Assembly (NCBI RefSeq): GCF_002165255.2 | Contig: NZ_CP028561.1 | Coordinates: 2,666,001 to 2,730,000, forward strand | Reading direction: 5' to 3' | DNA: 64,000 nucleotides | Source: Acinetobacter sp. WCHA45 | Lineage (GTDB): Bacteria > Pseudomonadota > Gammaproteobacteria > Pseudomonadales > Moraxellaceae | Shown here: piece by piece, positions 41,467 to 64,000 of the stretch | How positions within the stretch are numbered: position 1 is the stretch's first letter | How the letters are laid out: each line of letters begins with the position of its first letter | Translations under genes and position numbers: made by a program | The notes under the pieces: generated by a model | Database searches by the model: none | What the model saw: the letters and a program-made list of their open reading frames with translations, nothing else | What the model was told of the DNA's origin: nothing

Positions 41467-41468
41467 AA

Positions 41469-41696: not shown

Positions 41697-41760
41697 AAAA
41701 TTTCCTACTTAAATCATAAAAAGTACTTGCAACAACATAAAAATATGATAATTTATGTCT

Positions 41761-41778
41761 TAGGAATAATTTTTCCTA
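41761..41778. promoter_or_regulatory. Dyad operator between repressor and excisionase-like gene
   Basis: TAGGAA and TTCCTA are separated by 6 bp, and a further TTTCCTA lies near 41701 close to the repressor start. Probable repressor binding sites. Confidence 0.45.
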
Positions 41779-41808
41779 GTTACCTAGTAAAAAATATGAG
41801 GCTCTATT

Positions 41809-42018: not shown

Positions 42019-42037
42019 GGCTTAGGAGGTTTAACTG

Positions 42038-43219: not shown

Positions 43220-43463
43220 TAAAGCTTTCTTTGGTGGTGTGGTCGTCAGCCCTGAAGCAGATATGGTCGCTCGTGAATTAATCCATGAGCTACACATTCC
43301 CAAACTGCACAATCTGGCCTTTTTGCTGGAAATCAATAAATGCTTCGATGATCACCAAGCATTAAGACTCTGGCTACAGCGAATGCTGGATGAAGGGCAA
43401 GCTCATTACGATGACTTGGCTCAACAGGCCCGTCTCCGCTTAATGAGTCTCGCTCACTCATAA
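43212..43463 (+). CDS. Small hypothetical protein of the integrase element
   Basis: An 83-aa acidic helical protein (MNSKAFFGGVVVSPEADMVARELIHEL...). The ATG at 43212 overlaps the integrase stop by 8 nt and has AGAGGAG upstream, so translation is probably coupled. I recognise no family. A hairpin AAGGTCATC/GATGACCTT at 43475-43497 follows. Small proteins in this position are sometimes regulators or anti-defence factors, but nothing in the sequence shows this. Confidence 0.65.
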   Translation: MNSKAFFGGVVVSPEADMVARELIHELHIPKLHNLAFLLEINKCFDDHQALRLWLQRMLDEGQAHYDDLAQQARLRLMSLAHS

Positions 43464-43528
43464 AACGAACATAAAAGGTCATCAAATCGATGACCTTAGC
43501 CCCTTTATACCTATAAAAAGGTGAACAT

Positions 43529-44071
43529 ATGAATAAAGATATTTCAATTTGGATGCCACTCTATATTGGCGACCTACAGGCGAAATTTGCACGAATGACA
43601 GCAGAACAAATTGGTGCGGCACTGCTGTTAATGATGGATTTCTGGAAAAATGGTGCCATTCCTCATGATTTAGCAACAGTATGCAGCATCACGAAATTAC
43701 CGCAGCACACCAAGGCTAAAACTTTGTTAAATACGCTGATGGCCCTAGAATTGTTTGAAGTCGAGTCTGAGCAGATTCATTCAAATTTCTTAAGCAGTTT
43801 AAAAAGCCAGGCATTGCAAAATCAGCAAATGAAATCTGATAAAGCTAAAAATGCAGCTCAAGCACGTTGGGGGAAATCCGCTAGTAATGCTCAAGCATCA
43901 ACCAAGCAACGAAAAGTAAATGCTCAAGCAACTCCTGAGAAGAGCTCGAGTATTACTCAAGCCATGCTTGAATCATGCCCTTCATCTTCATCTTCATCTT
44001 CATCTTCATCTTCATCTTCAAATTTTGAAGAAAAAAATGAGAGTTTTTTAGAAAATTCAAAGTGGATTTAG
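43529..44071 (+). CDS. DUF1376 (YdaU-type) phage replication-region protein
   Basis: A 180-aa protein with the DUF1376 start MNKDISIWMPLYIGDLQAKFARMTAEQIGAALLL in its first third. DUF1376 proteins occur next to phage replication loaders. A basic, Ala/Gln-rich region follows (KNAAQARWGKSASNAQASTKQ), then a serine tract of 13 residues encoded by a TTCATC hexamer repeat, then an acidic end. It lies 10 nt before the DnaC-like gene. It likely recruits the loader to the element's origin. Confidence 0.8.
   Translation: MNKDISIWMPLYIGDLQAKFARMTAEQIGAALLLMMDFWKNGAIPHDLATVCSITKLPQHTKAKTLLNTLMALELFEVESEQIHSNFLSSLKSQALQNQQMKSDKAKNAAQARWGKSASNAQASTKQRKVNAQATPEKSSSITQAMLESCPSSSSSSSSSSSSSNFEEKNESFLENSKWI
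43981..44020 (+). repeat. TTCATC hexamer microsatellite inside the DUF1376 gene
   Basis: Six perfect tandem copies plus four bases encode a Ser tract. Changes of whole 6-bp units keep frame and would vary only the linker length. Confidence 0.9.
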
Positions 44072-44081
44072 GAGATCAGTC

Positions 44082-44828
44082 ATGAATACCATGCTTAAGA
44101 CACTCCAGTTTCGCGCAGAAACAACGGAAACACTTTGCGCTACCCATCATATACCCCTGATGGAAATTGCAGGTCACAGGCTCTGTAAATTGTGTGCCAA
44201 AGAAACCGTCCATCACTCAAATGTAGCCTATGAGGATGAACTGCAACAGCGATTGCTAGAACAGAAAATCAAAAACTCAGGGCTCAATAAACGCTATCTG
44301 GACCGTGGCTTCAAGAATTTTGTAGTTGCATGTCCTGCTCAAGACAATGCCATCAAACTATGTCAGGCTTTTGCGCAGCAGATTATTTCTGGTTACAATC
44401 CGAACATGTTGATGATTGGTACACCGGGTACAGGTAAAACCCATCTGAGCGCATCAATTATTCGCAACATTCTGCATAACAGTACAAAGTCTGCACGCTA
44501 CTATACCAGTGCAGAAATTGCTCAAAAAATGATGGATACCTGGTCAGATACTTCACGCTCTGAGAAAGAAGTCATCGACCATTTCTCCAGTTTTGATTTA
44601 TTAGTGATTGATGAATATGGCCTGCATGACCGGCATGAAAAACGCCTAGAGATGGTACATAAGGTTCTATATAGCCGTTATGACAATATGAAATCTACCC
44701 TGCTGATTTCCAATTTCACAGTCCAAAATATGCAGCGGGATTTAGGTGTAAGATTATGGTCTCGGTTACATGAGAACCATTTGATTGTAGTGCCGTGTTA
44801 TTGGGATGACCGACGAATTAGCGGATAA
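44082..44828 (+). CDS. DnaC-like AAA+ helicase loader
   Basis: A 248-aa ATPase that would load the host replicative helicase on the element's DNA. A zinc-binding N-terminus (C19-x-x-H22, C35-x-x-C38) precedes the AAA+ core with Walker A GTPGTGKT at 113-120, Walker B LLVIDEYG ending near 180, sensor LLISNF and the Arg-finger region RLWSRL. It is the last gene before the CRISPR array and is followed by a terminator 16 nt after its stop. Confidence 0.9.
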   Translation: MNTMLKTLQFRAETTETLCATHHIPLMEIAGHRLCKLCAKETVHHSNVAYEDELQQRLLEQKIKNSGLNKRYLDRGFKNFVVACPAQDNAIKLCQAFAQQIISGYNPNMLMIGTPGTGKTHLSASIIRNILHNSTKSARYYTSAEIAQKMMDTWSDTSRSEKEVIDHFSSFDLLVIDEYGLHDRHEKRLEMVHKVLYSRYDNMKSTLLISNFTVQNMQRDLGVRLWSRLHENHLIVVPCYWDDRRISG

Positions 44829-44932: not shown

Positions 44933-47900
44933 CTTCTAAGCTGCCTATACGGCAGTGGACGGCATGTCTCAATCAGCATTAGCAAAAAAGGCTTTCTAAG
45001 CTGCCTATATGGCAGTGAACTTGTTGGTGTGTTATCAGGTGGAATAGTATCATTTCTAAGCTGCCTGTATGGCAGTGAACCTATACACCAGTAGAAACGT
45101 ATTATTCAGCATTTTCTAAGCTGCCTGTATGGCAGTGAACACAAAGCTGAGTTTAATTTTTCAGTATCAACTTTTCTAAGCTGCCTGTATGGCAGTGAAC
45201 ACTCACCATCTTTATGGAAGCCTGCAAACACATTTCTAAGCTGCCTGTATGGCAGTGAACTCAAAGAGCTTGCAAACTCGATCTGGTCGCAATTTCTAAG
45301 CTGCCTGTATGGCAGTGAACTTGGAAGCGATTGGGCATTACTTGTTGGGTAATTTCTAAGCTGCCTGTATGGCAGTGAACGATCAACCCATGTGCCATCT
45401 TCTAATTTTGTTTTTCTAAGCTGCCTGTATGGCAGTGAACAAGGTCTCGAAGTTGGGGTAGGGTGAGTTCTTTTTCTAAGCTGCCTGTATGGCAGTGAAC
45501 TGATGTTCGCAGTTTTCGGATTGCTATTTATCTTTCTAAGCTGCCTGTATGGCAGTGAACGAAAAGCATTTGCAGCTGAAACCAAAGCACGTTTTCTAAG
45601 CTGCCTGTATGGCAGTGAACTTTTAGTTTCAAGCCCTGATTTAACAGCAACATTTCTAAGCTGCCTGTATGGCAGTGAACCAGTTAATGCATATTTAGAG
45701 AATATTCGTTACTTTCTAAGCTGCCTGTATGGCAGTGAACGTGGGAAATGGTATTGGTTATTGCCAATACAATTTTCTAAGCTGCCTGTATGGCAGTGAA
45801 CACAACAGCCCGATAATTGGTATGGACCAGTGATTTCTAAGCTGCCTGTATGGCAGTGAACTGTTGCATTTGATTACTGGTACACCTGGTGCATTTCTAA
45901 GCTGCCTGTATGGCAGTGAACGGCTTTTTGCTGCATTAGAGCGACGATATTCATTTCTAAGCTGCCTGTATGGCAGTGAACAAATACTTTTTACAATCGG
46001 AACATATTTATTATTTCTAAGCTGCCTGTATGGCAGTGAACTTTACGAAAAAGATGGGAAGAAATTCGATATTTTTCTAAGCTGCCTGTATGGCAGTGAA
46101 CGTTTAAGACAATATTTAACACGAAATTTGTAATTTCTAAGCTGCCTGTATGGCAGTGAACAAGCTGAACATATCCGCGACCATAATATAAATTTTCTAA
46201 GCTGCCTGTATGGCAGTGAACAAAATGTGCGTCAATCTACACATGGATGAATTTTTCTAAGCTGCCTGTATGGCAGTGAACATGGCGCGTCAGTTTATCC
46301 GAATTGGTCAACATTTCTAAGCTGCCTGTATGGCAGTGAACCTGCTTTGCTTACAATTGTTTGTACTTTTTTATTTCTAAGCTGCCTGTATGGCAGTGAA
46401 CACTGGCGAACCAAGCCGCGGCGATGCGTAAGTTTTCTAAGCTGCCTGTATGGCAGTGAACGGCTTTAAAAAACTTGCATCATTAATCAAATATTTCTAA
46501 GCTGCCTGTATGGCAGTGAACACAACAAAATACGTATTTAATGCGATGGAAACTTTCTAAGCTGCCTGTATGGCAGTGAACAACCAGCACCACAGCCGAT
46601 CCGCACAATCAATTTTCTAAGCTGCCTGTATGGCAGTGAACATTTAGTTTTTCGTGGACCATCTTTAGACAAATTTCTAAGCTGCCTGTATGGCAGTGAA
46701 CGCGACTTTAACAAGGCTATTGGAAAGCTTGGTTTTCTAAGCTGCCTGTATGGCAGTGAACGTTTCATTTTTATTCCCTGTAGTTTCGGTAAATTTTCTA
46801 AGCTGCCTGTATGGCAGTGAACTGTATGGTCTTTCAGGTGGTTCAGGTTTTTTGTTTCTAAGCTGCCTGTATGGCAGTGAACCTGACCGTGAACTCGCCG
46901 TCGCCACTGGTCCCTTTCTAAGCTGCCTGTATGGCAGTGAACTATTATTCCAATCAATAGAGCCATTTTCAATTTTTCTAAGCTGCCTGTATGGCAGTGA
47001 ACTGCTCTAAATCGCTCTAGCTGCTTAATTGTAGTTTCTAAGCTGCCTGTATGGCAGTGAACCTGCTTTTCTTACAATTGTGTGTACTTTCTTAGTTTCT
47101 AAGCTGCCTGTATGGCAGTGAACGGATGCTCTAATTCTCCCGTTTATAATCATACTTTCTAAGCTGCCTGTATGGCAGTGAACCAGATATATCTTTAAGC
47201 TTCCCTGCTTTCTGTTTTCTAAGCTGCCTGTATGGCAGTGAACTCAAGCCAGCAATTATTGCATCTGCATATATTTTTCTAAGCTGCCTGTATGGCAGTG
47301 AATACCCAACTTATCTAGGCTTGTTAAGTATCTCATTTCTAAGCTGCCTGTATGGCAGTGAACTAATCCCTTTTTCTAGCTCCAATGTTTACATGTTTCT
47401 AAGCTGCCTGTATGGCAGTGAACATTTGTTGTGTAATTGTCCAACCGCCTAAAGATTTCTAAGCTGCCTGTATGGCAGTGAACATTAAAAACCTCAAAAA
47501 GTGCTCGGATGACGATTTCTAAGCTGCCTGTATGGCAGTGAACCCCCAAGGATCGGAGTCGTTACACGGCCATGCTTTCTAAGCTGCCTGTATGGCAGTG
47601 AACGTGGCTTTGACATAGCTTTTAGTATTGTTTTATTTCTAAGCTGCCTGTATGGCAGTGAACAAGCAAGTACCGATACAATGACAAGCTTTTTTTTTCT
47701 AAGCTGCCTGTATGGCAGTGAACATCGAGCCACAAAAAATCATAATCACTGATGATTTCTAAGCTGCCTGTATGGCAGTGAACACGCTAGCAGCTTGTGA
47801 ACCTACAACTTGATTTTTCTAAGCTGCCTGTATGGCAGTGAACTGGCTGGAGTTTTAGGCGGTGCAGCAATTACATTTCTAAGCTGCCTGTATGGCAGTG

Positions 47901-50900
47901 AACTGAAATTATGTCAGATTCACGACTGATCAACTTTTCTAAGCTGCCTGTATGGCAGTGAACTATTAGGAAATAGGGTATGAGATCAATGGTTATTTCT
48001 AAGCTGCCTGTATGGCAGTGAACGGGTAGAACAACTCACTATAAATGATTTGTTCTTTCTAAGCTGCCTGTATGGCAGTGAACAACAACCTCCCTCGCCT
48101 TATCAATACCATGCTTTTCTAAGCTGCCTGTATGGCAGTGAACAGTTGTTACCAGGTCGTAACGGTATTGATGAATTTCTAAGCTGCCTGTATGGCAGTG
48201 AACGTTGATTTTGGGATTGAGCAAAATAGTTAAACTTTCTAAGCTGCCTGTATGGCAGTGAACTATATCAAATCACTTTTACGACTGACGATGATTTTCT
48301 AAGCTGCCTGTATGGCAGTGAACTAAGTATTATGCATACACTCAACAAGGTACTATTTCTAAGCTGCCTGTATGGCAGTGAACTAAGACTTAGCAAAGCT
48401 ACTTTAAGACAATATTTTCTAAGCTGCCTGTATGGCAGTGAACAATCAGGTGCATTAAAAGCAGCAGCTCGTTTTTTTCTAAGCTGCCTGTATGGCAGTG
48501 AACTTTGTGATCGAAATGTTGCTCATGATATTCAATTTCTAAGCTGCCTGTATGGCAGTGAACTGCAGCCCAAGTCATTAGTTGCTGACCTGCATTTTCT
48601 AAGCTGCCTGTATGGCAGTGAACGGTCAGGTTTGCTTAGGGTGAATTGATAACCATTTCTAAGCTGCCTGTATGGCAGTGAACATTTGATGTAGGTGAAT
48701 CAACATTGATTGTTGTTTCTAAGCTGCCTGTATGGCAGTGAACGATCAATCGATATGATGTCGTAAAACTGACTTTTTCTAAGCTGCCTGTATGGCAGTG
48801 AACCAACATATGCAGGAAGTACAGCAACAGTTTTTTTTCTAAGCTGCCTGTATGGCAGTGAACGCTATGAAGCAAGAGACGACTACACACCCTTCTTTCT
48901 AAGCTGCCTGTATGGCAGTGAACATAAACAACCGCTAAAAACACGATGATTGACATTTCTAAGCTGCCTGTATGGCAGTGAACCCACCATATACATCTAG
49001 TCAATATTTTTGGTTTTTCTAAGCTGCCTGTATGGCAGTGAACCACAAACTTTGAAAGCCCATTCACAGAAGACATTTCTAAGCTGCCTGTATGGCAGTG
49101 AACTCAGCAATGTAACAAACAGTGCCCTCACTTGAGTTTCTAAGCTGCCTGTATGGCAGTGAACCTGCTTCAAATTCGATTGCACCAATACCTAAATTTC
49201 TAAGCTGCCTGTATGGCAGTGAACTACTTCGTAATCTTCCCGTAAATTACTTGATATTTCTAAGCTGCCTGTATGGCAGTGAACTAGCAGACTCGTAGTA
49301 TTGATACAGTCGTTTATTTCTAAGCTGCCTGTATGGCAGTGAACGGTTTTGAGCAAATGTTGTTTTACCCATTGATTTTCTAAGCTGCCTGTATGGCAGT
49401 GAACGATAAACAACAACTTGATACTTATCTTCCAGATTTCTAAGCTGCCTGTATGGCAGTGAACCTTCTTTTGGACAAGCAGTTGGGGAAACATTATTTC
49501 TAAGCTGCCTGTATGGCAGTGAACTTATTCCAAGTGATAAAGCCAAGCATTGGAAGTTTCTAAGCTGCCTGTATGGCAGTGAACATTGGGGCAATGTTCA
49601 GCGCTGCGGATCAATTTTTTCTAAGCTGCCTGTATGGCAGTGAACTGATCAATTTCCCTATCACTTTAACTGACTGGTTTTCTAAGCTGCCTGTATGGCA
49701 GTGAACTCATAGAACAAATAGATATAGGTAATCAGAGATTTCTAAGCTGCCTGTATGGCAGTGAACTGTTTGTTGCCGTTGGTGACGATTTCCATATCTT
49801 TCTAAGCTGCCTGTATGGCAGTGAACTTTAACCCTTTCAACGTAACCAATGTCGACAATTTCTAAGCTGCCTGTATGGCAGTGAACCAGCAGAAACGTTA
49901 GCAATATCCTGTCCCCAATTTCTAAGCTGCCTGTATGGCAGTGAACGCCTACATGGGTGATGAATATGCTAGCTATTTTTTCTAAGCTGCCTGTATGGCA
50001 GTGAACGGAAATAATTTATTTAATAAAATATCCAAAAATTTCTAAGCTGCCTGTATGGCAGTGAACAGATGTTGCGTTCTACTGGAGTCATTTCAATTTT
50101 TCTAAGCTGCCTGTATGGCAGTGAACAAGAAAGCTGCTTTGACCCACTTAAAGACAACTTTCTAAGCTGCCTGTATGGCAGTGAACCATAGGGATCAGTT
50201 TTATCACATTTAGGAGGATTTCTAAGCTGCCTGTATGGCAGTGAACACCTTCGCATCTATGAAGACATTGCACCTATATTTCTAAGCTGCCTGTATGGCA
50301 GTGAACCATCCTCAGTTTATTGGGGTTCAACATTTAAATTTCTAAGCTGCCTGTATGGCAGTGAACGTGTGCGCTGAATTTTGACATCCTCAATTTGATT
50401 TCTAAGCTGCCTGTATGGCAGTGAACTGCCTGCAACACGTTCTTGGTGGTCATTTAAATTTCTAAGCTGCCTGTATGGCAGTGAACTTGCCAAGCATGCC
50501 AACTGAACTTTTTATAAATTTCTAAGCTGCCTGTATGGCAGTGAACTCAATGCCAACGGTGAAAAAAAGATGATGTATTTTCTAAGCTGCCTGTATGGCA
50601 GTGAACACACCGTGGTTAAACTGGTCGAGTATTTTAAGTTTCTAAGCTGCCTGTATGGCAGTGAACCGTTTCGGTCGTGTTAATTCTGTTGCTCGTTGTT
50701 TCTAAGCTGCCTGTATGGCAGTGAACAATAATCGGGCTGTAACCCTCCAACATATACATTTCTAAGCTGCCTGTATGGCAGTGAACGGCAACGAAACCGA
50801 CTGCATTTTAATTTGTGATTTCTAAGCTGCCTGTATGGCAGTGAACTATATGACACTAACCAAAAACGTGCTTATGAATTTCTAAGCTGCCTGTATGGCA

Positions 50901-53900
50901 GTGAACCATTTTAGTTTTTACAAGTTTTTTAGCGCTCATTTCTAAGCTGCCTGTATGGCAGTGAACCGAGTGCGTCTACAGGCTTGAAATCAATCACTTT
51001 TCTAAGCTGCCTGTATGGCAGTGAACTTAATATTATTCAGCAGAAGCCTAAAGGCACTTTTCTAAGCTGCCTGTATGGCAGTGAACTACCTTAGCCATTT
51101 CAGGCGCAATACGGTCTATTTCTAAGCTGCCTGTATGGCAGTGAACAAAGCGATATTGCGGTACTCAATAAAGATCATTTTCTAAGCTGCCTGTATGGCA
51201 GTGAACGATAAATATCTAAGATGAGCCGATCCATTTGATTTCTAAGCTGCCTGTATGGCAGTGAACTGCTAACTCAATATTTAAGAGATTTTTTCGGGTT
51301 TCTAAGCTGCCTGTATGGCAGTGAACCTACAGATGGCACAACCGCAATTACTGCTGTTTTTCTAAGCTGCCTGTATGGCAGTGAACTTGGACCATACTTC
51401 CCATGAATCGACCATACATTTTCTAAGCTGCCTGTATGGCAGTGAACTCTTTGGTTTTGCATCCCCAAGCATAGACATATTTCTAAGCTGCCTGTATGGC
51501 AGTGAACATATTGATGTAGTCGCTATACAAAAAGAATTATTTCTAAGCTGCCTGTATGGCAGTGAACTTGAAGCATACGAAAAAGTTGCATTGGTTGAAT
51601 TTCTAAGCTGCCTGTATGGCAGTGAACCAGGATTGGTATCACTCCTTCCATTCGTGAATTTTCTAAGCTGCCTGTATGGCAGTGAACAGCCCAACGTCCC
51701 GCAGTTCCGCTACCGTTCGTTTCTAAGCTGCCTGTATGGCAGTGAACTGACGACCTTATTTATTTTTATGCTAGATCATTTTCTAAGCTGCCTGTATGGC
51801 AGTGAACCCGATGCTTCGTTCACAAACGAAAGGTTTTTATTTCTAAGCTGCCTGTATGGCAGTGAACTACCACCTAAGCGAATGGATTGCATGGTGATTT
51901 TTCTAAGCTGCCTGTATGGCAGTGAACACCGTGCTACCAATACAAGTGCTGCTATTGCATTTCTAAGCTGCCTGTATGGCAGTGAACGGGTTATAGGTAA
52001 CAGCTTGCATTCTATTATCGTTTCTAAGCTGCCTGTATGGCAGTGAACATTTCATCATCAAATGGTTTATTAGGGTTATATTTCTAAGCTGCCTGTATGG
52101 CAGTGAACCCTAACTTATGAAGTAACAGCAAAGCCAGTTTTTTCTAAGCTGCCTGTATGGCAGTGAACATAAAGACATAGAACAAAAAACCGATGAAGAA
52201 TTTCTAAGCTGCCTGTATGGCAGTGAACAATAAAGTATCTATAGGAAAGGCGCAGTAATGTTTCTAAGCTGCCTGTATGGCAGTGAACAAGTACAGCTTT
52301 TCAGAGGTGAGGGCGGTGTCTTTCTAAGCTGCCTGTATGGCAGTGAACATATTCAATATTCGGGGCACGATTGCCACACTTTTCTAAGCTGCCTGTATGG
52401 CAGTGAACCCTGATTAGGCTGCTGTCTGAAGTAGTCAAATTTTCTAAGCTGCCTGTATGGCAGTGAACCCTGATTAGGCTGCTGTCTGAAGTAGTCAAAT
52501 TTTCTAAGCTGCCTGTATGGCAGTGAACATTCAATATCCATCCTCCCCTCCGTTGTGGTCTTTCTAAGCTGCCTGTATGGCAGTGAACTACAGTGATAAG
52601 GCAAGGGATACAAATAAAGATTTCTAAGCTGCCTGTATGGCAGTGAACCCGCTCTTGAAAGGTTAATGTGTTCGATCCTATTTCTAAGCTGCCTGTATGG
52701 CAGTGAACCTTCGCAAGTTGCAAAAGTTCTTGCTCGTGGTTTTCTAAGCTGCCTGTATGGCAGTGAACTCTCTCTATAACATTTCCTATTTTCTGTAATT
52801 TTTCTAAGCTGCCTGTATGGCAGTGAACGGTAAACGCTTTTTGTGGGTATCAATAGTTGTTTTCTAAGCTGCCTGTATGGCAGTGAACTATGAAATTGGT
52901 TCAGGTCACGAATTAAAAACTTTCTAAGCTGCCTGTATGGCAGTGAACTAAGTGCAAACTTGCAAGCAGGCGCTCAAGTATTTCTAAGCTGCCTGTATGG
53001 CAGTGAACTTGCATCAATTGATGAAGCAGCATTAGCCATTTTTCTAAGCTGCCTGTATGGCAGTGAACCCATTTGAAACTCCAAAAACTAAGCCCCGTCA
53101 TTTCTAAGCTGCCTGTATGGCAGTGAACTTTCAAAAACTACTGCTCAGAGCATCCCGAATTTTCTAAGCTGCCTGTATGGCAGTGAACTACAGTGATAAG
53201 GCAAGGGATACAAATAAAGATTTCTAAGCTGCCTGTATGGCAGTGAACCCGCTCTTGAAAGGTTAATGTGTTCGATCCTATTTCTAAGCTGCCTGTATGG
53301 CAGTGAACTTTGCAGAAGTATTCGATGCTGAACTAGATAATTTCTAAGCTGCCTGTATGGCAGTGAACTTGTGAAGTCTGTAGCAGCTGCTGGCCAATCA
53401 TTTCTAAGCTGCCTGTATGGCAGTGAACGGTAGTACGGTTGAACCGCATGGGGGTAGTACTTTCTAAGCTGCCTGTATGGCAGTGAACGATAGAGGTTTT
53501 TCCTGTTGATTAAACTTGTGTTTCTAAGCTGCCTGTATGGCAGTGAACATTCTGAAAAAGAAAAAGAACAGGGCGCTATTTTTCTAAGCTGCCTGTATGG
53601 CAGTGAACGAGATCTGAACGACTGATTCACCGTTTACAACTTTCTAAGCTGCCTGTATGGCAGTGAACGTGTAACAAGAGAATCTCGAATGTATGAACTA
53701 TTTCTAAGCTGCCTGTATGGCAGTGAACCCAATATTCGTGGACATTCTGAATTAACAGATTTTCTAAGCTGCCTGTATGGCAGTGAACTGCTGATTTAAT
53801 CTTCATGCTTCGTAACAACGTTTCTAAGCTGCCTGTATGGCAGTGAACAATTTGAAATCGGGGAGTCCACGCTTTCTAATTTTCTAAGCTGCCTGTATGG

Positions 53901-56900
53901 CAGTGAACGTTGATAAACCTGATGGATAAGTCCGCATAACTTTCTAAGCTGCCTGTATGGCAGTGAACAGATTTATTTCATGCACTTCAACAAGTGTAAA
54001 TTTCTAAGCTGCCTGTATGGCAGTGAACCACCTTTGAAAGCTTTTGCTCTTTGAAGTAGTTTTCTAAGCTGCCTGTATGGCAGTGAACATTAGGACTGGT
54101 GTAATCTTCGGGATAGTCTATTTCTAAGCTGCCTGTATGGCAGTGAACACTGCCCCTCATATACAGGCGTTGCAGCAATATTTCTAAGCTGCCTGTATGG
54201 CAGTGAACTAAGATCCTAGCAGAGCAATATAACTTGATTATTTCTAAGCTGCCTGTATGGCAGTGAACTTGAGCGTCGTACAGATCAACGATTTGCAAGT
54301 TTTCTAAGCTGCCTGTATGGCAGTGAACAAGTGGAAAGGTGAATACTTTTGCATTCGCACTTTCTAAGCTGCCTGTATGGCAGTGAACCATCGGTGCAGC
54401 TGAACGCTTGGATGCTATGTTTTCTAAGCTGCCTGTATGGCAGTGAACAGGAAGAGGCTTTTAGAAGCGCATCTACAGTATTTCTAAGCTGCCTGTATGG
54501 CAGTGAACGAGCAATTGATGGGACTTTGATCGTTCAGCAATTTCTAAGCTGCCTGTATGGCAGTGAACACGACCTGTACTTGGATTTCAGCTATCAGTAC
54601 TTTCTAAGCTGCCTGTATGGCAGTGAACCAATGGCGGTTTTTTTATGTCTGGAGAAAATATTTCTAAGCTGCCTGTATGGCAGTGAACATTCTGAAGTAA
54701 TTAAAAAGCCCTCTGAGTGATTTCTAAGCTGCCTGTATGGCAGTGAACATGTTCACAAAAGCAACAGGGCTAAAAATTGATTTCTAAGCTGCCTGTATGG
54801 CAGTGAACGTCTTTTCTTGACTATGAAGATCGAGATTTATTTTCTAAGCTGCCTGTATGGCAGTGAACGTTACATTAATTCTCAAGTAATATCTCAAATG
54901 TTTCTAAGCTGCCTGTATGGCAGTGAACACGAAAACATACTTGCGAAATCACTGATAATGTTTCTAAGCTGCCTGTATGGCAGTGAACAGTGATCAATAT
55001 CAATCCTGATAATCGTGGATTTTCTAAGCTGCCTGTATGGCAGTGAACAAGCCGCAGATCCATAATTGAACCTGTCATAATTTCTAAGCTGCCTGTATGG
55101 CAGTGAACCCTTACGTTGGACCATACCTTGCACCCGTTATTTTCTAAGCTGCCTGTATGGCAGTGAACGCAGGGTTGAAGCAAATGGAATGGCTGATGCT
55201 TTTCTAAGCTGCCTGTATGGCAGTGAACATGAAAATGGCGATCCTGTTTTAAATGAAAATTTTCTAAGCTGCCTGTATGGCAGTGAACTTTAAGAAAATT
55301 ACACGTCATCACGACTATTTTTTCTAAGCTGCCTGTATGGCAGTGAACCTCCGCCAGCGAATGTTGTAGTTACTGCTAGATTTCTAAGCTGCCTGTATGG
55401 CAGTGAACGTTGTTTTGCCTGAAATGAAAGCAGATATGGATTTCTAAGCTGCCTGTATGGCAGTGAACGAAACATTCGGCAAATGATGTTTAACAAAGAT
55501 TTTCTAAGCTGCCTGTATGGCAGTGAACGTAAAACAGCTAGTGTTCAGACCGAGACAAATTTTCTAAGCTGCCTGTATGGCAGTGAACCTTTACTAGGTA
55601 AAGTGGTTAGCGCTTTACTATTTCTAAGCTGCCTGTATGGCAGTGAACTATTTAAAATTGCATATTCAGTGACATTTATTTTTCTAAGCTGCCTGTATGG
55701 CAGTGAACGCATTTCTTCAGTTGTTGAAGTAACCGAAATATTTCTAAGCTGCCTGTATGGCAGTGAACTTCTGTTTTGTAGGCGTTGTAGGCGTCTAATA
55801 TTTCTAAGCTGCCTGTATGGCAGTGAACGGCATACTCACTTTATGATCTGATCATTTGTATTTCTAAGCTGCCTGTATGGCAGTGAACATAATAACTGTT
55901 GCTTTGCCGATGGATAGCTTTTTCTAAGCTGCCTGTATGGCAGTGAACGGGTCGCATAGATTACCTTTTCTTTTTCTGTTTTTCTAAGCTGCCTGTATGG
56001 CAGTGAACATTTGGTGAATATAAGATTTTCATGTGGTACATTTCTAAGCTGCCTGTATGGCAGTGAACGTTTTAATTAATTTTTTGACTGCTTTGTACTA
56101 TTTCTAAGCTGCCTGTATGGCAGTGAACCCAGAGTGATAAATCACAAAGGTTTTTAAATCTTTCTAAGCTGCCTGTATGGCAGTGAACTAATTACTCGCA
56201 TTGCGAAGTGGTTAGAGCAATTTCTAAGCTGCCTGTATGGCAGTGAACGTTCAATCCATAATCCGTGAATCAAGCCGTTTTTTCTAAGCTGCCTGTATGG
56301 CAGTGAACAGCATGAGCAATGACAGGGTTTGGATTGATTTTTTCTAAGCTGCCTGTATGGCAGTGAACATCGATCAATTTTATGTCACGCCATTCTACTA
56401 TTTCTAAGCTGCCTGTATGGCAGTGAACTGAAATTATTTTATCTCTATATTTCCCGTTCATTTCTAAGCTGCCTGTATGGCAGTGAACAGCAACATCAAA
56501 CGATTGTTGATGGCGAAATATTTCTAAGCTGCCTGTATGGCAGTGAACTCTTTTCTCCAGATAATAAAAAACCGCCAAAATTTCTAAGCTGCCTGTATGG
56601 CAGTGAACCTGCATACGCCGCAGCATTTGCGATTCAAAAATTTCTAAGCTGCCTGTATGGCAGTGAACCGCAGAAGATTATCTGATGAGTATGGTCGGGA
56701 TTTCTAAGCTGCCTGTATGGCAGTGAACGTTGAATTATATAGTGGAGGATTTTGCCCATTTTTCTAAGCTGCCTGTATGGCAGTGAACGAATAAATCTGC
56801 GCAATTTATCCAAAAAGTAATTTCTAAGCTGCCTGTATGGCAGTGAACTCATTACCCTTTCGGCTGTTCTCACTAACAATTTTCTAAGCTGCCTGTATGG

Positions 56901-59900
56901 CAGTGAACATCAATAAGATAGAAGTCTTCATCATTAACTATTTCTAAGCTGCCTGTATGGCAGTGAACTTAGTTTTTTGGATTATGTCGACGATTACACT
57001 TTTCTAAGCTGCCTGTATGGCAGTGAACCTTTAACTGTTCAACTTTTGAAAGTGCTTTAATTTCTAAGCTGCCTGTATGGCAGTGAACTACCCATCTAAT
57101 ATAGCAGCTATAGTAAAGGATTTCTAAGCTGCCTGTATGGCAGTGAACTTATTGCAGCATCAATAGCACGTTTTTGGTATTTTCTAAGCTGCCTGTATGG
57201 CAGTGAACTTCTTTCATCATTCCTGACATCGAAACAATCTTTTCTAAGCTGCCTGTATGGCAGTGAACGGTTCACAAGAGTTTACAGTTCCATACATCAT
57301 TTTCTAAGCTGCCTGTATGGCAGTGAACTAAGCCGTTGATTGCTGCAAATGTATCAACTGTTTCTAAGCTGCCTGTATGGCAGTGAACCAGGATTGAAAG
57401 CAAAACTTGATGAACTTCTTTTTCTAAGCTGCCTGTATGGCAGTGAACTGTAACCAAATGCATTGATAAAAGTTTGAAGTTTTCTAAGCTGCCTGTATGG
57501 CAGTGAACTAATAAATGGGATAACTTGAGAGCATCTAATATTTCTAAGCTGCCTGTATGGCAGTGAACTTATTTTGTTTTGGTGTCTATCTAGCCATAAA
57601 TTTCTAAGCTGCCTGTATGGCAGTGAACGAGAAACGCAAGAATCTCAAATCTGCATCAATTTTCTAAGCTGCCTGTATGGCAGTGAACAATAACTATTGT
57701 TAATCTTGATGTTCGCAGGCTTTCTAAGCTGCCTGTATGGCAGTGAACTTTTAAGCTTGGTAAAATCAATGCCGTCCGTTTTTCTAAGCTGCCTGTATGG
57801 CAGTGAACAGCTGAACAGCTTAAAGACAATGCAACACAATTTTCTAAGCTGCCTGTATGGCAGTGAACTGAAGCACATCATGTTGCAGACCAAAACATGT
57901 TTTCTAAGCTGCCTGTATGGCAGTGAACTTAAAGATATTTTTCCTAATGCTCGTTTTATTTTTCTAAGCTGCCTGTATGGCAGTGAACTCAATGAAAACT
58001 GCCTTTTCTCCGTTCGGCTTTTTCTAAGCTGCCTGTATGGCAGTGAACAATGAAAACTGCCTTTTCTCCGTTCGGCTTTGTTTCTAAGCTGCCTGTATGG
58101 CAGTGAACAGGGTAAAACTGATTTTACAATCGACTCACTTTTTCTAAGCTGCCTGTATGGCAGTGAACGGTGCGGCGGATCAGTTTCCGCGATGGAATAA
58201 TTTCTAAGCTGCCTGTATGGCAGTGAACGAAGAAGCTAGAAGTGCGGCGGATGAGTGGGATTTCTAAGCTGCCTGTATGGCAGTGAACTGATCGAGTGAA
58301 TAGTGACATTGTGCTGAATTTTTCTAAGCTGCCTGTATGGCAGTGAACCCACTGAAACAAAATTAGCTGTCATTTATGGATTTCTAAGCTGCCTGTATGG
58401 CAGTGAACAAGGAAGCTGCAAAGGCTTCAATTGATGAAATTTTCTAAGCTGCCTGTATGGCAGTGAACTCAAGCATGTTACAGATACCACATATTTATGT
58501 TTTCTAAGCTGCCTGTATGGCAGTGAACTTTTCACCACAACTGGCATCACTTTTTGCAGATTTCTAAGCTGCCTGTATGGCAGTGAACTTTATACCGTTA
58601 CGCCTGAACAAATTGGAACATTTCTAAGCTGCCTGTATGGCAGTGAACACTTTTAAGAATAAGAATACCTATTCTGCATATTTCTAAGCTGCCTGTATGG
58701 CAGTGAACTATTCCTTACCAATGACCGCAACGGCGATACTTTTCTAAGCTGCCTGTATGGCAGTGAACCATAATAAAAATAATAATAAAGAGGTCAGTAT
58801 TTTCTAAGCTGCCTGTATGGCAGTGAACACTGTGACTCTTCTATAGCAGAGATCTATATATTTCTAAGCTGCCTGTATGGCAGTGAACCCCTTATGTCAT
58901 GGGCGCATCGTGTGAAGTTTTTTCTAAGCTGCCTGTATGGCAGTGAACTAAAACAACAGATAGTTACGACTCGAACAACTTTTCTAAGCTGCCTGTATGG
59001 CAGTGAACTTCCAGAGGAAGGGAGCTGGTGGCTCGATAAATTTCTAAGCTGCCTGTATGGCAGTGAACACCATTTTCCCCCGCGCCCGCTGCCGCTAAAT
59101 TTTCTAAGCTGCCTGTATGGCAGTGAACAAAAGTTTTAAGTTTGCTTTAAATTGCGCTTCTTTCTAAGCTGCCTGTATGGCAGTGAACGTTAATTGAATG
59201 AGCTGTGCAACCCGATAAGATTTCTAAGCTGCCTGTATGGCAGTGAACGCACTGTACCCGAAGCGACTGAGACAACGGATTTTCTAAGCTGCCTGTATGG
59301 CAGTGAACTGCGAGCGCAACTTGTTCTAGTGTTTCATTGTTTTCTAAGCTGCCTGTATGGCAGTGAACGCTTCTACAAGAAGTTTGGCTTTGAACATACA
59401 TTTCTAAGCTGCCTGTATGGCAGTGAACTATTCATCAGAACATTCAAAACTATTTGCTCTTTTCTAAGCTGCCTGTATGGCAGTGAACTTATCAACTTTG
59501 CCTTTAGTCTTGGTTTTTGATTTCTAAGCTGCCTGTATGGCAGTGAACCACTAAATAATCCAAGCTCAATGGCAGTAGGATTTCTAAGCTGCCTGTATGG
59601 CAGTGAACATTTGTACGAATCTCTCAATCCTACAGTGAATTTTCTAAGCTGCCTGTATGGCAGTGAACAATTCTGGGCAGAACTTGTCCTCAATGGAATC
59701 TTTCTAAGCTGCCTGTATGGCAGTGAACGTGCAGCCCGATGCCATATGTACTATAACCACTTTCTAAGCTGCCTGTATGGCAGTGAACTCAGGATTGAAG
59801 AGGGTTATGCACCGATTGAGTTTCTAAGCTGCCTGTATGGCAGTGAACCTTCTCGTATGGGTCGTATTCGTGATGCATTATTTCTAAGCTGCCTGTATGG

Positions 59901-60028
59901 CAGTGAACCGTTACACGGTGGCATAGTTCGCCTGCACGTTTTTCTAAGCTGCCTGTATGGCAGTGAACAGTCACCTCAAATCGCTGTAGGCTTGCGATAT
60001 TTTCTAAGCTGCCTGTATGGCAGTGAAC
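44933..60028 (-). CRISPR. Type I-F CRISPR array, 252 repeats and 251 spacers
   Basis: Repeats are 28 bp. On the minus (transcribed) strand they begin GTTCACTGCC, form the stem CTGCC/GGCAG around ATACA and end CTTAGAAA, as type I-F repeats do. The unit is 60 bp; eight units are 61 bp, which accounts exactly for the total span. By eye 249 repeats are identical. Exceptions are the first (44933-44960, four differences), the second (44993, one difference) and the one at 47276-47303 (last base on the plus strand T instead of C). The decayed repeats are at the left, so the leader end is the right, next to cas6f. Spacers are 32 bp, eight of 33 bp. Spacer duplications are at 52409/52469, 52589/53189 and 52649/53249. 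Confidence 0.99.
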
Positions 60029-60112
60029 AGCAATTTTAAAGCAAAAAATAAAGTTATAACAGTGATTTAACTCTTAAATCTCTCAAAAGACCCAAGTTTT
60101 AAACCACTATCA

Positions 60113-60125
60113 TAAGCTATTGATT
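60113..60125 (-). promoter_or_regulatory. IHF-consensus site in the leader
   Basis: AATCAATAGCTTA on the minus strand fits WATCAANNNNTTR at every fixed position. It lies 85 bp from the first repeat. IHF-bent leaders are known to direct integration in type I-E and I-F systems. Confidence 0.6.
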
Positions 60126-60134
60126 TTATTAAGC

Positions 60135-60146
60135 TGTTAAAGAGTG
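60135..60146 (-). promoter_or_regulatory. boxA-like antitermination element before the array
   Basis: CACTCTTTAACA on the minus strand matches the ribosomal boxA TGCTCTTTAACA at 10 of 12 bases, including the CTCTTTAACA core. It lies 14 nt after the cas6f stop and 107 nt before the first repeat. Confidence 0.5.
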
Positions 60147-60159
60147 AAAAAATATTGGG

Positions 60160-60774
60160 TTAAAATTCGGGTACAGATGACACCGAACTTAATCCGTAAG
60201 TGCTAAAAATCTGAGTTTCAGATTTTTCAGCAGATTGCTTTTCAATAAAAATTTTAAAAGCATGTTTCTGACTTAATGCTAAATCTTCAGATGTACTGTC
60301 ACTCAGCATATTGATATAGGGTAAATCAGTTGTTTGTACAAACTGACCATAATGTGCCAAGGCATTTTCAAAACTAAAGCGCCCTTTTCTCTCATCATGT
60401 CGTGCTAAACGGGCAGCACTACTCTTCACTTGTTTACGCTTATAGACTGCATAACCAGTAACTTTTTCTAAAGGTACTGCTTTTACAGAACTAATGTGTA
60501 CATAATCCAAATAACGACTGAGCCATTTTGGCACATCCAGTTGAATTAATTCCTGTTCACTTAAGCCAAAGATACGTAGCTTTTCGCCAATAAATCCCTT
60601 CCCTTTTTGAGGATCAAAACGATAATCAGGGAATGAAAAACCTATTTTCACCTTACTGCTTTCGTCTTTTAAACCAGCCAATGCAAGATGTAGCTGTTTA
60701 TAAATTTTAGACCATAAAAAGTTAATCGAGATTTCATCATCTGGCAGAAATTTTAATTCCAGATAATAATTCAT
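60160..60774 (-). CDS. cas6f: CRISPR pre-crRNA endoribonuclease Cas6f (Csy4)
   Basis: A 204-aa RNase that cuts each repeat at the base of its hairpin and stays bound to the crRNA 3' end. Catalytic His29 is conserved (KIYKQLHLAL). The Arg-rich helix that reads the hairpin major groove is visible at ~113-130 (KRKQVKSSAARLARHDERK). It starts inside the csy3 stop (TAATG overlap), and the leader follows its own stop. The predicted crRNA 5' handle from this repeat would be CUUAGAAA. Confidence 0.96.
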   Translation of the reverse strand: MNYYLELKFLPDDEISINFLWSKIYKQLHLALAGLKDESSKVKIGFSFPDYRFDPQKGKGFIGEKLRIFGLSEQELIQLDVPKWLSRYLDYVHISSVKAVPLEKVTGYAVYKRKQVKSSAARLARHDERKGRFSFENALAHYGQFVQTTDLPYINMLSDSTSEDLALSQKHAFKIFIEKQSAEKSETQIFSTYGLSSVSSVPEF

Positions 60775-61814
60775 TATTTATCACTCTCGCCAAATACACC
60801 ACCACGAACCAAAACCGCCATTACATAATGCTGCTGTTCAAGTTCAGGTACTTTATTGTAATTAACCCAAGCATCAAACAAACTATAAAAGTCTTGTTTT
60901 TCTTTAGGCTGACGATACGCCTTACCTTCTGAAGTCACTGAACCATACGGCTCAACTGCAATCGGTTTATCTGCATTTGGATACCATATATCAATTGTGC
61001 GTAGTGCATTACCAATTTTTTGAGAATGCATACCAGCTTCGTTGTTGCCAAATGAGTATAAAGTTTTGCTTTTAGCACCTTTGGAATTACTCGTATCTAA
61101 AATGAGTTCCTGTGATGGATAGACTTCTTGTCCCTCACCTAAACGAGAAAAACCTGTCACTTTAAGTAATACATGCTCATGACCACTTAAACCTGCTTCA
61201 ATCCAAGCTGAAAGCTGTTTAATTTCAGTTTGTTGATCTTGGTGTACAGTTGCTTCATTTAAACGATTTTGTAATGCATCAAAACTTAATTTTTCTGCGC
61301 TCTTACCATCAATTAAACGCTCAACTGTGACCGTAACATTTTCAGCGCCAATACGGTTACGCCATAAAAAACGACCATTGGCTAAATTCACAGCATAGCG
61401 ATTCGCAAGTTCACTAAACTTATTCGCTGTTTCATAGCCTGACACCGCCGCTTCAAGGCGTTCAGCAAATGCTGCATCATTACATGCAGATGGACGACCT
61501 ACATTTGGCAATACACGTAAGCTAAACGTCACGGCAACCGTATCTTTACCTTGTGGTAAAGCAGCAACATCAACCGTTTGTAAATTTGGTTTATTCACTG
61601 CTGCATTAATTGCTGCTTCATCAGTTTCTTTGCTATTTTTAGGGCGATTCGAAATCGTACCGCGCACAGATTTTGCTTGAATTAAAATTGGTGTATTACC
61701 TGTGCCTTGTGCAATCTCCACCCAATTTACGGCAAACATACGTCCATCTGATGCATCAAGATGACGGTTAAATGAAAGTACCGATGCTGTTTTTAATTTG
61801 TCATTCTTAGCCAT
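60774..61814 (-). CDS. csy3: Type I-F Cascade backbone protein Csy3 (Cas7f)
   Basis: A 346-aa protein, present in about six copies along the crRNA in the surveillance complex. Family traits are the N-terminus KTASVLSFNRHLDASDGRMFAVNW, GTISNR, LPNVGRPSACNDAAFAERLE and the FLWRNRIGAENVTV block. Length is standard. It lies 2 nt after csy2 and overlaps cas6f by one base, showing tight translational coupling. Confidence 0.97.
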   Translation of the reverse strand: MAKNDKLKTASVLSFNRHLDASDGRMFAVNWVEIAQGTGNTPILIQAKSVRGTISNRPKNSKETDEAAINAAVNKPNLQTVDVAALPQGKDTVAVTFSLRVLPNVGRPSACNDAAFAERLEAAVSGYETANKFSELANRYAVNLANGRFLWRNRIGAENVTVTVERLIDGKSAEKLSFDALQNRLNEATVHQDQQTEIKQLSAWIEAGLSGHEHVLLKVTGFSRLGEGQEVYPSQELILDTSNSKGAKSKTLYSFGNNEAGMHSQKIGNALRTIDIWYPNADKPIAVEPYGSVTSEGKAYRQPKEKQDFYSLFDAWVNYNKVPELEQQHYVMAVLVRGGVFGESDK

Positions 61815-61816: not shown

Positions 61817-62923
61817 TTAAAATTCCTCTTCTTCTATTTCAGATTCAAATTCAAATGATTGATGGGTGTCTTCGTGTGGTAATGACGTGTCGATATCTAA
61901 CTTCGGTGCAAATGGTTGAACGAGCTCATACAGCCCATTTTTAGGTTCAGTGTTGTAATTCCATAAAGTATCGACAATATTTTTAATACGATGTGGGCTT
62001 TGCCATTCACCTAAACTAATTAAGGTTTCGACAAAGGTGGCAGGATAGTCATCATGACGTAATCCTTTAATAACACCTTGAGGCTGTAAATCCGTTAAAG
62101 CTGCATAACCAATCGGTATCGGCACGAGCCAACCTTTTAAATGTTCAGGCCGTGGTCGTAACGTCCAAACACCGTCTACTGACTCTTGATCGACTGATGC
62201 TTCCTGTGCAGTACTGACAAAATTGAAGCGGTGAATGTCCAATAAAGTATCGAGTAAATCAGGACTATTTTTCTGAGTCGCTAAATATGTTGGATACTGA
62301 GCCAACCAATTTTGATGTGCCATCAAAAGCTCATGACGATGCTGTAAAGCAAAGCCTGGTAATACACTCCGACGTAGTATTTTGGTTTTATCTACCGCAT
62401 CATGTTCTGACCAATTGATCAATTTAGCTTTGACACGCTTATGTGGGAAAACAGAACCACCTGCCAAACGCATGTTATAGACCAAGTGATTTAATCGATC
62501 TAACAGGCTTTGTGTCTGAGTAGATAAATCTTCATCATTGGCAGATAGATGCGGATCAAGACCATCTCCCGCCAAACCAATCACTAAACTGACTTCAAAA
62601 TGTCCCTTGCCCTCTTCAATCATCGCTGGTGTAGAACCATCTGCTTTCAAGGGGTGACGAGCCAAATTCAGTTGATAAGGCGAATAGCGGAAACTATTGG
62701 TTTTGGTAATTTGTGGGTTAAATTGATGAGATATAATCCCGACACCACAACACTCAATAGATGCATATTCAGCAATTTGATTCAGCTGACGCTGTAAATG
62801 ATGCATAAATCCAGTGAATGCACTCGGTGCTGGGAAGCCCCACGTTAAATGACTACTGATAATAGATGCATTTTCAACATTTAAACGTACAACATACAAT
62901 GCTTTAGGATAAGTCCGATGCAT
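61817..62923 (-). CDS. csy2: Type I-F Cascade protein Csy2 (Cas5f)
   Basis: A 368-aa subunit that caps the 5' handle of the crRNA with Csy1. It begins with the RAMP-like strand ALYVVRLNVENASIISSHLTWGFPAPSAFTGFMHHLQR and contains GGSVFPHKRVKAKLI, both typical. The C-terminus is a Glu-rich tail (FEFESEIEEEEF). Its ATG overlaps the csy1 stop (TAATG). Confidence 0.96.
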   Translation of the reverse strand: MHRTYPKALYVVRLNVENASIISSHLTWGFPAPSAFTGFMHHLQRQLNQIAEYASIECCGVGIISHQFNPQITKTNSFRYSPYQLNLARHPLKADGSTPAMIEEGKGHFEVSLVIGLAGDGLDPHLSANDEDLSTQTQSLLDRLNHLVYNMRLAGGSVFPHKRVKAKLINWSEHDAVDKTKILRRSVLPGFALQHRHELLMAHQNWLAQYPTYLATQKNSPDLLDTLLDIHRFNFVSTAQEASVDQESVDGVWTLRPRPEHLKGWLVPIPIGYAALTDLQPQGVIKGLRHDDYPATFVETLISLGEWQSPHRIKNIVDTLWNYNTEPKNGLYELVQPFAPKLDIDTSLPHEDTHQSFEFESEIEEEEF

Positions 62924-64000
62924 TAGGCAAACTCCTCTTTCAGCAATTGTAATTTGTCACGTAAAATCAGAGACCAAGCACGGGCTTCATGATCATCTAA
63001 ATCCAAAATTTTTCCTTTTTGGGTGAGGATATCATTGAGCCATTTGCCAAAGTTATAACCCACTTCAGTATGCCAATCTCGTTCACGATAGGCCTGTAAC
63101 CACTCGGTTTCTTCTTCCGTCAATTCTTCGGCATCTTCTTTATCAAACAGTGCTTCTCGGTAGCCATAATCGAGCCAAAAGCTTTCTGCACGACTAAAAT
63201 TAGAATCCTGTGTCCAGCCTGATGGCGCACTTTGTTGTAGTTCAAAACTCATATCAATGATGCAATCCGCCAATTTAGAGACCAAATCATCACGCTGGGA
63301 ACGGAATTCATCATTATTACGACGATTTTCTTTACGATACAAAGCCACGATTTTATGCAACAAAGGCTTAATGTCTTTACGATTGCTTAAATAGGCTGTA
63401 AAAACCGAACCACGTTTTGGTAGTTCAATCTGCTGACCTTTCCAAGTTGGTGGAATAGACGGTAATAGCCACATAGAGCCACGACGGTCACTATTAAGCT
63501 GTGAAATATTTTGTGGTTTAGAACCACCAAAATTTTGTACCAATAGATTCGGGTATTCACGGCTTTCATGTGCATGATGTAATTTTTTAAACCGTGCTTC
63601 ATGTAGTGCTTTACTCTCATCGCTAAACCGATCATATGAGAGCTGTTGATACGCTCGATGAACCAATGAACTCGGATATAAAATCACCAAGGTATGATAT
63701 TCATCATCTTGCACAGGAAATAACACTTGTTTCGATAAACGTCCTGCATTGAGTTCTGTTGGCAACTGACTAAATGCTAAAAAACGCTCATAACGCAGTT
63801 GTGCCGTTTCAGATTTCACAGACAATGCTGTGATTAATTCCTGATCTGCATTTAACAAACGCTCTAGTAACGACGTACCTTGAAAAGATAAACGCAGCAT
63901 CTTAAAGACATCGAGTACAGCTGCATTACCAATGACATCCGCATCTAGTTTGATACCTTGGGAACCCACATAGTCATGTGTTTTATCCGTATTGCTATAA
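62923..64000 (-). CDS. csy1: Type I-F Cascade large subunit Csy1 (Cas8f), 5' end outside window
   Basis: The C-terminal ~359 residues are present and the frame is open to the window edge (…THDYVGSQGIKLDADVIGNAAVLDVFKMLRLSF). Csy1 recognises the PAM and helps hold the crRNA 5' end. The C-terminal half contains WLLPSIPPTWKG and a helical end (DLDDHEARAWSLILRDKL). It is separate from csy2, unlike the Cas8-Cas5 fusion of transposon-encoded I-F3 systems. Cas1 and the Cas2-3 fusion are expected upstream, beyond the right edge. Confidence 0.95.
   Translation of the reverse strand, partial: YSNTDKTHDYVGSQGIKLDADVIGNAAVLDVFKMLRLSFQGTSLLERLLNADQELITALSVKSETAQLRYERFLAFSQLPTELNAGRLSKQVLFPVQDDEYHTLVILYPSSLVHRAYQQLSYDRFSDESKALHEARFKKLHHAHESREYPNLLVQNFGGSKPQNISQLNSDRRGSMWLLPSIPPTWKGQQIELPKRGSVFTAYLSNRKDIKPLLHKIVALYRKENRRNNDEFRSQRDDLVSKLADCIIDMSFELQQSAPSGWTQDSNFSRAESFWLDYGYREALFDKEDAEELTEEETEWLQAYRERDWHTEVGYNFGKWLNDILTQKGKILDLDDHEARAWSLILRDKLQLLKEEFA

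What the first reader, a model, noticed from the sequence alone, without database searches (positions are those of the whole stretch)
44933..60028. Exceptionally long single type I-F array: 252 repeats, 251 spacers
One repeat per 60-bp unit can be followed without a gap across 15.1 kb, and 249 repeats appear identical. Most arrays have tens of spacers; arrays above 200 are rare. The homogeneous repeats and intact cas genes imply sustained recent acquisition with little deletion, which is unusual because long arrays normally recombine between repeats.
Basis: partly seen in the sequence, partly recalled or inferred. Interest (0 to 1): 0.75.

Follow-up and report, generated by a model that had tools for sequence, protein, structure and literature searches.

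The report
Very long type I-F CRISPR array
An Acinetobacter chromosome holds one unbroken CRISPR memory array of 251 phage and plasmid fragments beside complete immune genes and a known kind of small-RNA guard module; it is an extreme but ordinary member of a known kind.

Summary
It is a type I-F1 array; csy1-4 adjoin it, and open cas2-3 and cas1 lie just outside the window. In 31 fetched target stretches, 36 of 251 spacers match phage, prophage or plasmid DNA at up to 5 mismatches. 28 of these 36 have the I-F PAM (5' CC); reversed spacers give no match. Spacers against one element lie closer together than chance, as primed acquisition predicts. No self-target was seen. It is the longest single I-F array recognised in a 175-genome genus panel, but 17 of 175 have 100 or more repeat matches, and 587 spacers are on record elsewhere. 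Between cas3 and csy1, beyond the window, lies a homologue of the published Acinetobacter CreTA guide-toxin module. Related I-F1 loci keep such a guide-target pair with or without the toxin; mismatches concentrate at guide positions 6, 12 and 18. New member of a known kind.

The parts
44933..60028 (-). CRISPR array, 252 repeats and 251 spacers, type I-F; newest spacer at the 60028 end
44933..44960 (-). terminal, oldest repeat, 4 mismatches
44993..45020 (-). second-oldest repeat, 1 mismatch
47276..47303 (-). repeat 213, 1 mismatch at its first base
52409..53280 (-). stretch with the duplicated spacers 113-114 = 123-124 and 126 = 127
   Evidence: coordinates from the 60-bp register
60029..60159 (-). 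A+T-rich leader between csy4 and the first repeat
   Evidence: sequence printed; function inferred
60160..60774 (-). csy4 (cas6f), 204 aa
   Evidence: Pfam Cas_Csy4, E 8.5e-47
60774..61814 (-). csy3 (cas7f), 346 aa
   Evidence: Pfam Cas_Csy3, E 3.7e-134
61817..62923 (-). csy2 (cas5f), 368 aa
   Evidence: Pfam Cas_Csy2, E 3.1e-79
62923..64000 (-). csy1 (cas8f); the 444-aa frame runs 257 bp past the window end. Beyond it lie, at L006:6355-6387 (-) the creT mini-ORF, 6463-6482 the CreA target, 6573-6648 (+) the mini-CRISPR (creA), 6665-10150 (-) cas2-3 and 10147-11127 (-) cas1

Best explanation
A genuine single type I-F1 CRISPR array in an Acinetobacter chromosome. It grew at its csy4-side end by repeated, largely primed spacer uptake against Acinetobacter phages, prophages, phage-plasmids and plasmids, with only minor rearrangement visible. 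The locus reads cas1, cas2-3, CreTA module, csy1, csy2, csy3, csy4, leader, array. The CreTA module makes a crRNA-like guide (CreA) that leads the Csy complex to a CC-flanked, partly matching site upstream of a 33-bp toxin mini-ORF (creT), so that loss of Csy would release the toxin and the cell keeps its Csy genes. Because creT lies between that site and csy1 on the same strand, the guide probably tunes csy1-4 as well. Shown by sequence: array, genes, targets, PAM, guide, target, mini-ORF. Inferred: expression, interference, toxicity, repression, effect on csy1.
For: Array and genes. Foreign targets: 36 of 251 spacers at up to 5 mismatches, 28 of 36 with 5' CC, 0 matches for reversed spacers. 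Same-element spacers closer than 20,000 of 20,000 permutations. Nine of ten scanned target genes fall in phage families with a stated role. No self-target. CreTA anatomy: guide-target 17 of 20 with CC, 0 of 3000 shuffles as good, mini-ORF MFSTHLIRRV*, the same plan as the published modules (PMC10097628). Link to csy1: a terminator-like hairpin at the end of cas3 in the cas direction and none reported between creT and csy1; in four relatives without creT the target lies 38-52 nt upstream of csy1.
Against: 215 of 251 spacers have no match in the stretches examined. Of the seven multi-spacer target groups two are scattered along the array (spacers 19, 54, 63, 98, 199, 243; and 27, 97). No expression data. 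A promoter-like site between creT and csy1 exists (1 found against 2.0 expected in shuffles), so csy1 may have its own promoter.
Confidence: 0.8

Rival explanations
1. The assembly inflated the length by duplicating units.
For: Three spacer sequences occur twice, within a stretch of 15 units.
Against: 248 of 251 spacers are distinct; every unit is 60 or 61 bp; the array lies deep inside a 2.88-Mb contig.
Confidence: 0.04
2. Two arrays were fused, the older one making up roughly units 134-251.
For: All eight 33-nt spacers lie at positions 134-238 (Fisher p = 0.002, split chosen after looking). Some relatives have a second array.
Against: One repeat sequence throughout, no unit long enough to hide an inner leader; spacer G+C equal in both halves.
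Confidence: 0.06
3. The array is a long relic: once active, now silent.
For: No expression data; 215 of 251 spacers unmatched here.
Against: Open cas1, cas2-3 and csy1-4, identical repeats at the leader end, and perfect matches of young spacers 7, 11 and 27 to known plasmids.
Confidence: 0.1
4. The guard module causes the length: by addiction or by feedback on Csy it lets arrays grow.
For: Module present here with the longest array; guide and target co-vary in 11 of 11 relatives.
Against: Repeat totals do not differ: median 104.5 in 12 genomes with a module, 72 in 19 counted as without, p = 0.67 (for one of the 19, G166, the gap was not fetched). Long arrays occur in loci without the gap, such as G173 and G077.
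Confidence: 0.1

Closest known systems
Type I-F1 CRISPR-Cas of Acinetobacter sp. WCHA45, LoGeW2-3 and ANC 3789 (Wang et al. 2023, PMC10097628)
   Same: Same gene order, about 400-bp cas3-csy1 gap with mini-CRISPR, CC-flanked partial target and 33-bp mini-ORF; Csy1 92% identical to G117, whose contig has the length of the LoGeW2-3 plasmid
   Different: Array of 252 repeats against 78 in G117 and 17 plus 4 seen in G092; own spacer sequence in the guide; toxicity and repression not tested here
Haliangium ochraceum array of 587 spacers (PMC7145573, PMC8047081, passages)
   Same: Exceptionally long single array
   Different: More than twice as long; its subtype was not looked up
CreR, cas-regulating crRNA-like guides (PMC13131331 and PMC12737573, passages; Shmakov et al. 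2023, recalled only)
   Same: Partial, PAM-flanked complementarity of a mini-CRISPR guide to the region upstream of an effector gene
   Different: In this locus a toxin mini-ORF lies between target and csy1; the creT-less form is found only in relatives

Membership tests
Type I-F1 CRISPR-Cas | csy1, csy2, csy3, csy4 together | tested here: met
   Pfam matches to all four
Type I-F1 CRISPR-Cas | cas1 and a cas2-cas3 fusion | tested here: met
   Cas2 domain of I-F Cas3 at residues 1-78, Cas3 over the whole length, Cas1
Type I-F1 CRISPR-Cas | 28-bp repeat with 5-pair stem, about 32-nt spacers | tested here: met
Type I-F1 CRISPR-Cas | 5' CC PAM at targets | tested here: met
   28 of 36 best sites
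Type I-F1 CRISPR-Cas | crRNA production and interference | not testable with these tools
   needs RNA and plasmid or phage tests
Type I-F2 (I-Fv) | lacks csy1 and csy2 (recalled definition) | tested here: not met
   both present, although Cas1 scores best on the Cas1fv model
CreTA of Acinetobacter I-F loci | two degenerate repeats around a spacer in the cas3-csy1 gap, opposite to cas | tested here: met
CreTA of Acinetobacter I-F loci | guide partly matches a nearby CC-flanked site | tested here: met
   17 of 20, 0 of 3000 shuffles as good
CreTA of Acinetobacter I-F loci | 33-bp mini-ORF with SD downstream of the target, divergent from creA | tested here: met
   MFSTHLIRRV*, upstream GTAAGGGGGAAATA
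CreTA of Acinetobacter I-F loci | creT toxic, repressed by CreA with Csy | not testable with these tools
   needs a bench test
CreR-type cas autoregulator | guide target directly upstream of a cas gene, no toxin between | tested here: not met
   in this locus creT lies between; met in G174, G073, G099, G134 and G153

The most novel reading that the evidence does not exclude
In Acinetobacter I-F1 loci one crRNA-like guide does two jobs at one target: it silences the toxin creT and the csy1-4 operon behind it. creT is a passenger that comes and goes (3 changes on the Csy1 tree, 0% of 200 bootstrap trees with one) while guide and target co-evolve. The crRNA pool of a giant array would compete with this guide for Csy and so raise csy expression to match array size. 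Against the last step: array size does not differ with the module.
Probability: 0.25. Interest if true: 0.6.

Novelty: new member of a known kind. Interest (0 to 1): 0.38.

Why it matters
A 251-spacer array is a long, ordered record of the mobile elements met by one Acinetobacter lineage and a natural test of how a cell copes with dilution of each crRNA. The neighbouring module makes one idea directly testable: that array size and Csy supply are coupled by competition between crRNAs and a guide aimed upstream of csy1. The guide-target pairs of 27 loci also give an evolutionary read-out of Csy pairing: 0 of 135 mismatches at positions 1-5, and 61 of 81 at positions 6, 12 and 18.

Tried and rejected
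Array size against presence of the module: tested, no difference. Self-targeting spacers: none seen. Array carried by the tRNA-Gly element: the 32-nt tRNA-Gly end occurs, at up to 3 mismatches, only in the two tandem tRNAs and once far away, so no second att-like end flanks the locus. Fusion of two arrays: no unit could hide an inner leader. A type I-F cas-targeting guide as something new: first thought so, because the reviews read name I-B, I-E and V-A or only 'type I and V-A'; withdrawn when a reference list brought up Shmakov et al. 2023, whose abstract, as I recall it, reports such mini-arrays in type I and tests one from I-F1. That paper is not held. Paper searches made.

Weak points of the module survey: the list of seven 8-nt handles used was partly made after seeing some of the loci; the nine named non-Acinetobacter loci tested (of 18) were picked after seeing gaps or repeat-like sequence; p-values ignore shared descent; the csy1 start of G134 is uncertain.
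Full report
OBSERVATION. A scan of the window's minus strand finds 252 repeats in 44933-60028: 249 exact, two with one mismatch, the terminal one with four; 251 spacers, 243 of 32 nt and 8 of 33 nt. The whole-genome search on both strands agrees and shows one extra repeat on the opposite strand, 620 bp beyond the window end. The repeat GTTCACTGCCATACAGGCAGCTTAGAAA reads on the minus strand, so spacer 1, the newest, lies at 60028 beside csy4, and the oldest at 44933.

GENES. csy1-4 match Pfam Cas_Csy1 to Cas_Csy4; csy1 runs 257 bp past the window. Beyond it cas2-3 (1161 aa) and cas1 (326 aa) are open. The genus is Acinetobacter: panel genomes that the tool calls 'same genus' have contigs of the same length as named Acinetobacter records, for example G120:C41 and NZ_PJRJ01000032.1 (32,073 bp) and G117:C2 and NZ_CP024012.1 (179,399 bp).

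IS IT EXCEPTIONAL? With a pattern for this repeat family, 59 of 175 genus genomes match. With a broader I-F pattern this genome has 252 matches and G166 has 254, but G166's lie in two arrays, about 164 and 88 repeats by their coordinates. Next come G145 with 193 (two arrays), G077 with 171, G109 with 168 (two arrays) and G173 with 163. 17 of 175, this one included, have 100 or more matches; the reversed pattern gives at most 9 per strand. So this is the longest single I-F array recognised in that panel; broken assemblies and other repeat types are undercounted. The record that I read of is 587 spacers, and a typical bacterial array has fewer than 50 (passages of PMC7145573 and PMC8047081). Acinetobacter plasmids can carry long arrays too: the match in an A. 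lwoffii plasmid of 221 kb runs over 7.5 kb in one piece.

WHAT THE SPACERS TARGET. Both halves of the array were compared with phage records, plasmid records and the 175 genus genomes. 31 target stretches were fetched out of the many listed, so the count is a lower bound. In them 36 of 251 spacers match at up to 5 mismatches; the same spacers reversed give no match at up to 6. 28 of the 36 best sites have CC on the 5' side, the I-F PAM; the 3' side shows no comparable preference. Of ten target genes scanned, nine match phage families with a stated role: integrase (hit by five spacers), endolysin, Holliday junction resolvase (second-best family), RecT, replication initiator, tail, holin, major head, terminase; the tenth matches families of unknown function. 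Others lie on plasmids; spacer 23 matches 13 listed Acinetobacter plasmid records at a site without a listed gene, pOXA58_010005 among them. Spacers against one element lie closer in the array than chance: mean distance 42.7 units, 0 of 20,000 permutations as small. Tight groups are 50, 55, 61, 68, 71, 79; 140, 141, 143, 144; 7, 11, 20, 21; and 245, 248. Two groups are scattered (19, 54, 63, 98, 199, 243; and 27, 97). Spacers 33 and 34 come from one sequence shifted by 2 nt. This is what primed acquisition predicts. Self-targets: the older half has no match outside the array and the mini-CRISPR at E up to 0.01; the newer half has only five short or weak matches elsewhere, E 0.07 to 0.9; none at up to 6 mismatches in the rest of the window and L006.

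REARRANGEMENT. Spacers 113-114 recur as 123-124, and 126 as 127, so unequal exchange or slippage has occurred, though little is visible. Loss cannot be measured without sister strains. All eight 33-nt spacers lie at positions 134-238 (p = 0.002, split chosen after looking).

THE GUIDE MODULE BESIDE csy1. Between cas2-3 and csy1, outside the window, lies a mini-CRISPR on the opposite strand (L006:6573-6648): a repeat with 6 mismatches, a 20-nt spacer TAGTTCCTTTTATTCAATCT, and a repeat with 1 mismatch. The spacer matches a CC-flanked site in the same gap at 17 of 20 positions (mismatches at 6, 11 and 18); 0 of 3000 shuffled spacers do as well. Downstream of the site, on the csy strand, is a 33-bp mini-ORF (MFSTHLIRRV*) behind a purine run. 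This is the plan of the Acinetobacter CreTA of Wang et al. 2023 (PMC10097628; abstract, passages and section 6 read), in which guide and Csy repress a toxic RNA.

RELATIVES. 36 of 175 genus genomes have a Csy1 match; 30 loci were given. In the 11 whose Csy1 is at least 72% identical (ours included) a guide and a CC-flanked target were found in 11 of 11: seven with the mini-ORF and four without (G174, G073, G099, G134), where the target lies 38-52 nt upstream of the csy1 start used. Shuffled guides do as well in 0 of 2000 (G000, G117, G120, G092, G109), 10 of 2000 (G038), 83 of 2000 (G078, weak), 0 (G174), 11 (G073), 15 (G099) and 5 (G134) of 5000. Of the other 19 loci, 18 have a gap of 9-31 bp and no room for a module; G153, with Csy1 28% identical, has a 232-bp gap with a 17 of 20 pair (0 of 5000) and no creT. 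Each of the 11 guides fits its own target best or tied best; 0 of 20,000 re-pairings reach the observed sum. On a Csy1 tree creT needs 3 changes and 0% of 200 bootstrap trees need one, but well-supported branches alone force only one, and only 2 of 11 inner branches are well supported.

BEYOND THE GENUS. In a class-wide sample 32 of 369 genomes have Csy1; 29 loci besides ours were given. Four showed no cas3 end in the flank. Of the other 25, 11 have a gap of 80 bp or more; 8 of these 11 show a guide-target pair with at most 2 of 1000 null draws as good; two have no repeat-like handle and one has no pair (609 of 1000). Of 18 non-Acinetobacter loci, nine were tested, picked after seeing gaps or repeat-like sequence: seven positive (Stenotrophomonas mori weak, 22 of 2000; three Moraxella share one guide) and two negative. 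Pooled over the 27 positive loci (22 distinct guides), mismatches number 0 of 135 at positions 1-5, 61 of 81 at positions 6, 12 and 18 (75%, as chance would give), and 41 of 405 at the other positions of 1-18 (these include 1-5). For the 22 distinct guides the figures are 48 of 66 and 34 of 330. CC is strictly the best flanking dinucleotide in 23 of 27 and tied in 4. The score did not use position, so the period of six is separate evidence for pairing inside a Csy complex, where every sixth guide base is flipped out (recalled). The first repeat of 24 of the 27 was checked: 16 of 24 keep a full 5-pair stem at the canonical place, against 29 of 4800 shuffles.

IS THE MODULE NEW? CreR guides that repress cas promoters are listed for I-B, I-E and V-A (PMC13131331, one passage) or for type I and V-A (PMC12737573, passages). 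I recall, but could not read, Shmakov et al. 2023 (Nucleic Acids Res.), which reports conserved mini-arrays complementary to cas promoters in type I and tests one from I-F1. So no new kind is claimed. In the papers listed or read after searches I did not see the coming and going of the toxin on one guide-target pair, nor a link to array size; both are inferences here.

DOES THE MODULE EXPLAIN THE LENGTH? Not on these data: median repeat totals are 104.5 (12 genomes with the module) and 72 (19 counted as without, one of which, G166, was counted so without its gap being fetched), p = 0.67. That many crRNAs compete with the guide and so raise Csy remains open and testable.

VERDICT. Observation confirmed; interpretation partly supported. 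An extreme, well-formed and probably active member of a known kind, with a known type of guard module.

Noticed in passing
window 40939-44828: Two tandem tRNA-Gly genes, a phage-type integrase (42038-43219), a DUF1376 primosomal-like protein (43529-44071) and a DnaC-like helicase loader (44082-44828) directly beside the old end of the array: remains of a phage or satellite element.
   Followed up: partly
window 44933-60028, spacers 134-238: All eight 33-nt spacers lie in the older part of the array, none among the newest 133.
   Followed up: partly
NZ_CP046295.1:100773-108303: An A. lwoffii plasmid of 221 kb matches 7.5 kb of array in one piece, so a long array of this repeat type can sit on a plasmid.
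   Followed up: no
L006:11273-17250: Upstream of cas1 lie an HNH protein, a methyltransferase and a SNF2 helicase that scores on DpdE and ZorD models, then a YefM-YoeB pair at 17651-18179.
   Followed up: no
L006:10147-11127: Cas1 scores higher on PADLOC's Cas1fv model (631 bits) than on Cas1f (474), although the effector genes are I-F1.
   Followed up: no
L060:7192-7295: Spacer 110 has three perfect matches and one with 3 mismatches, 24 bp apart, inside a repeat in a phage replication-initiator gene.
   Followed up: no
L010:7292-7642: In Thauera sp. Sel9 the cas3-csy1 gap holds five repeat-like units at 60-bp spacing, a small array rather than a guide-target module.
   Followed up: partly
L006:6655-6679: A terminator-like hairpin overlaps the end of cas3 in the cas direction; relatives show similar inverted repeats there, not counted.
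   Followed up: no
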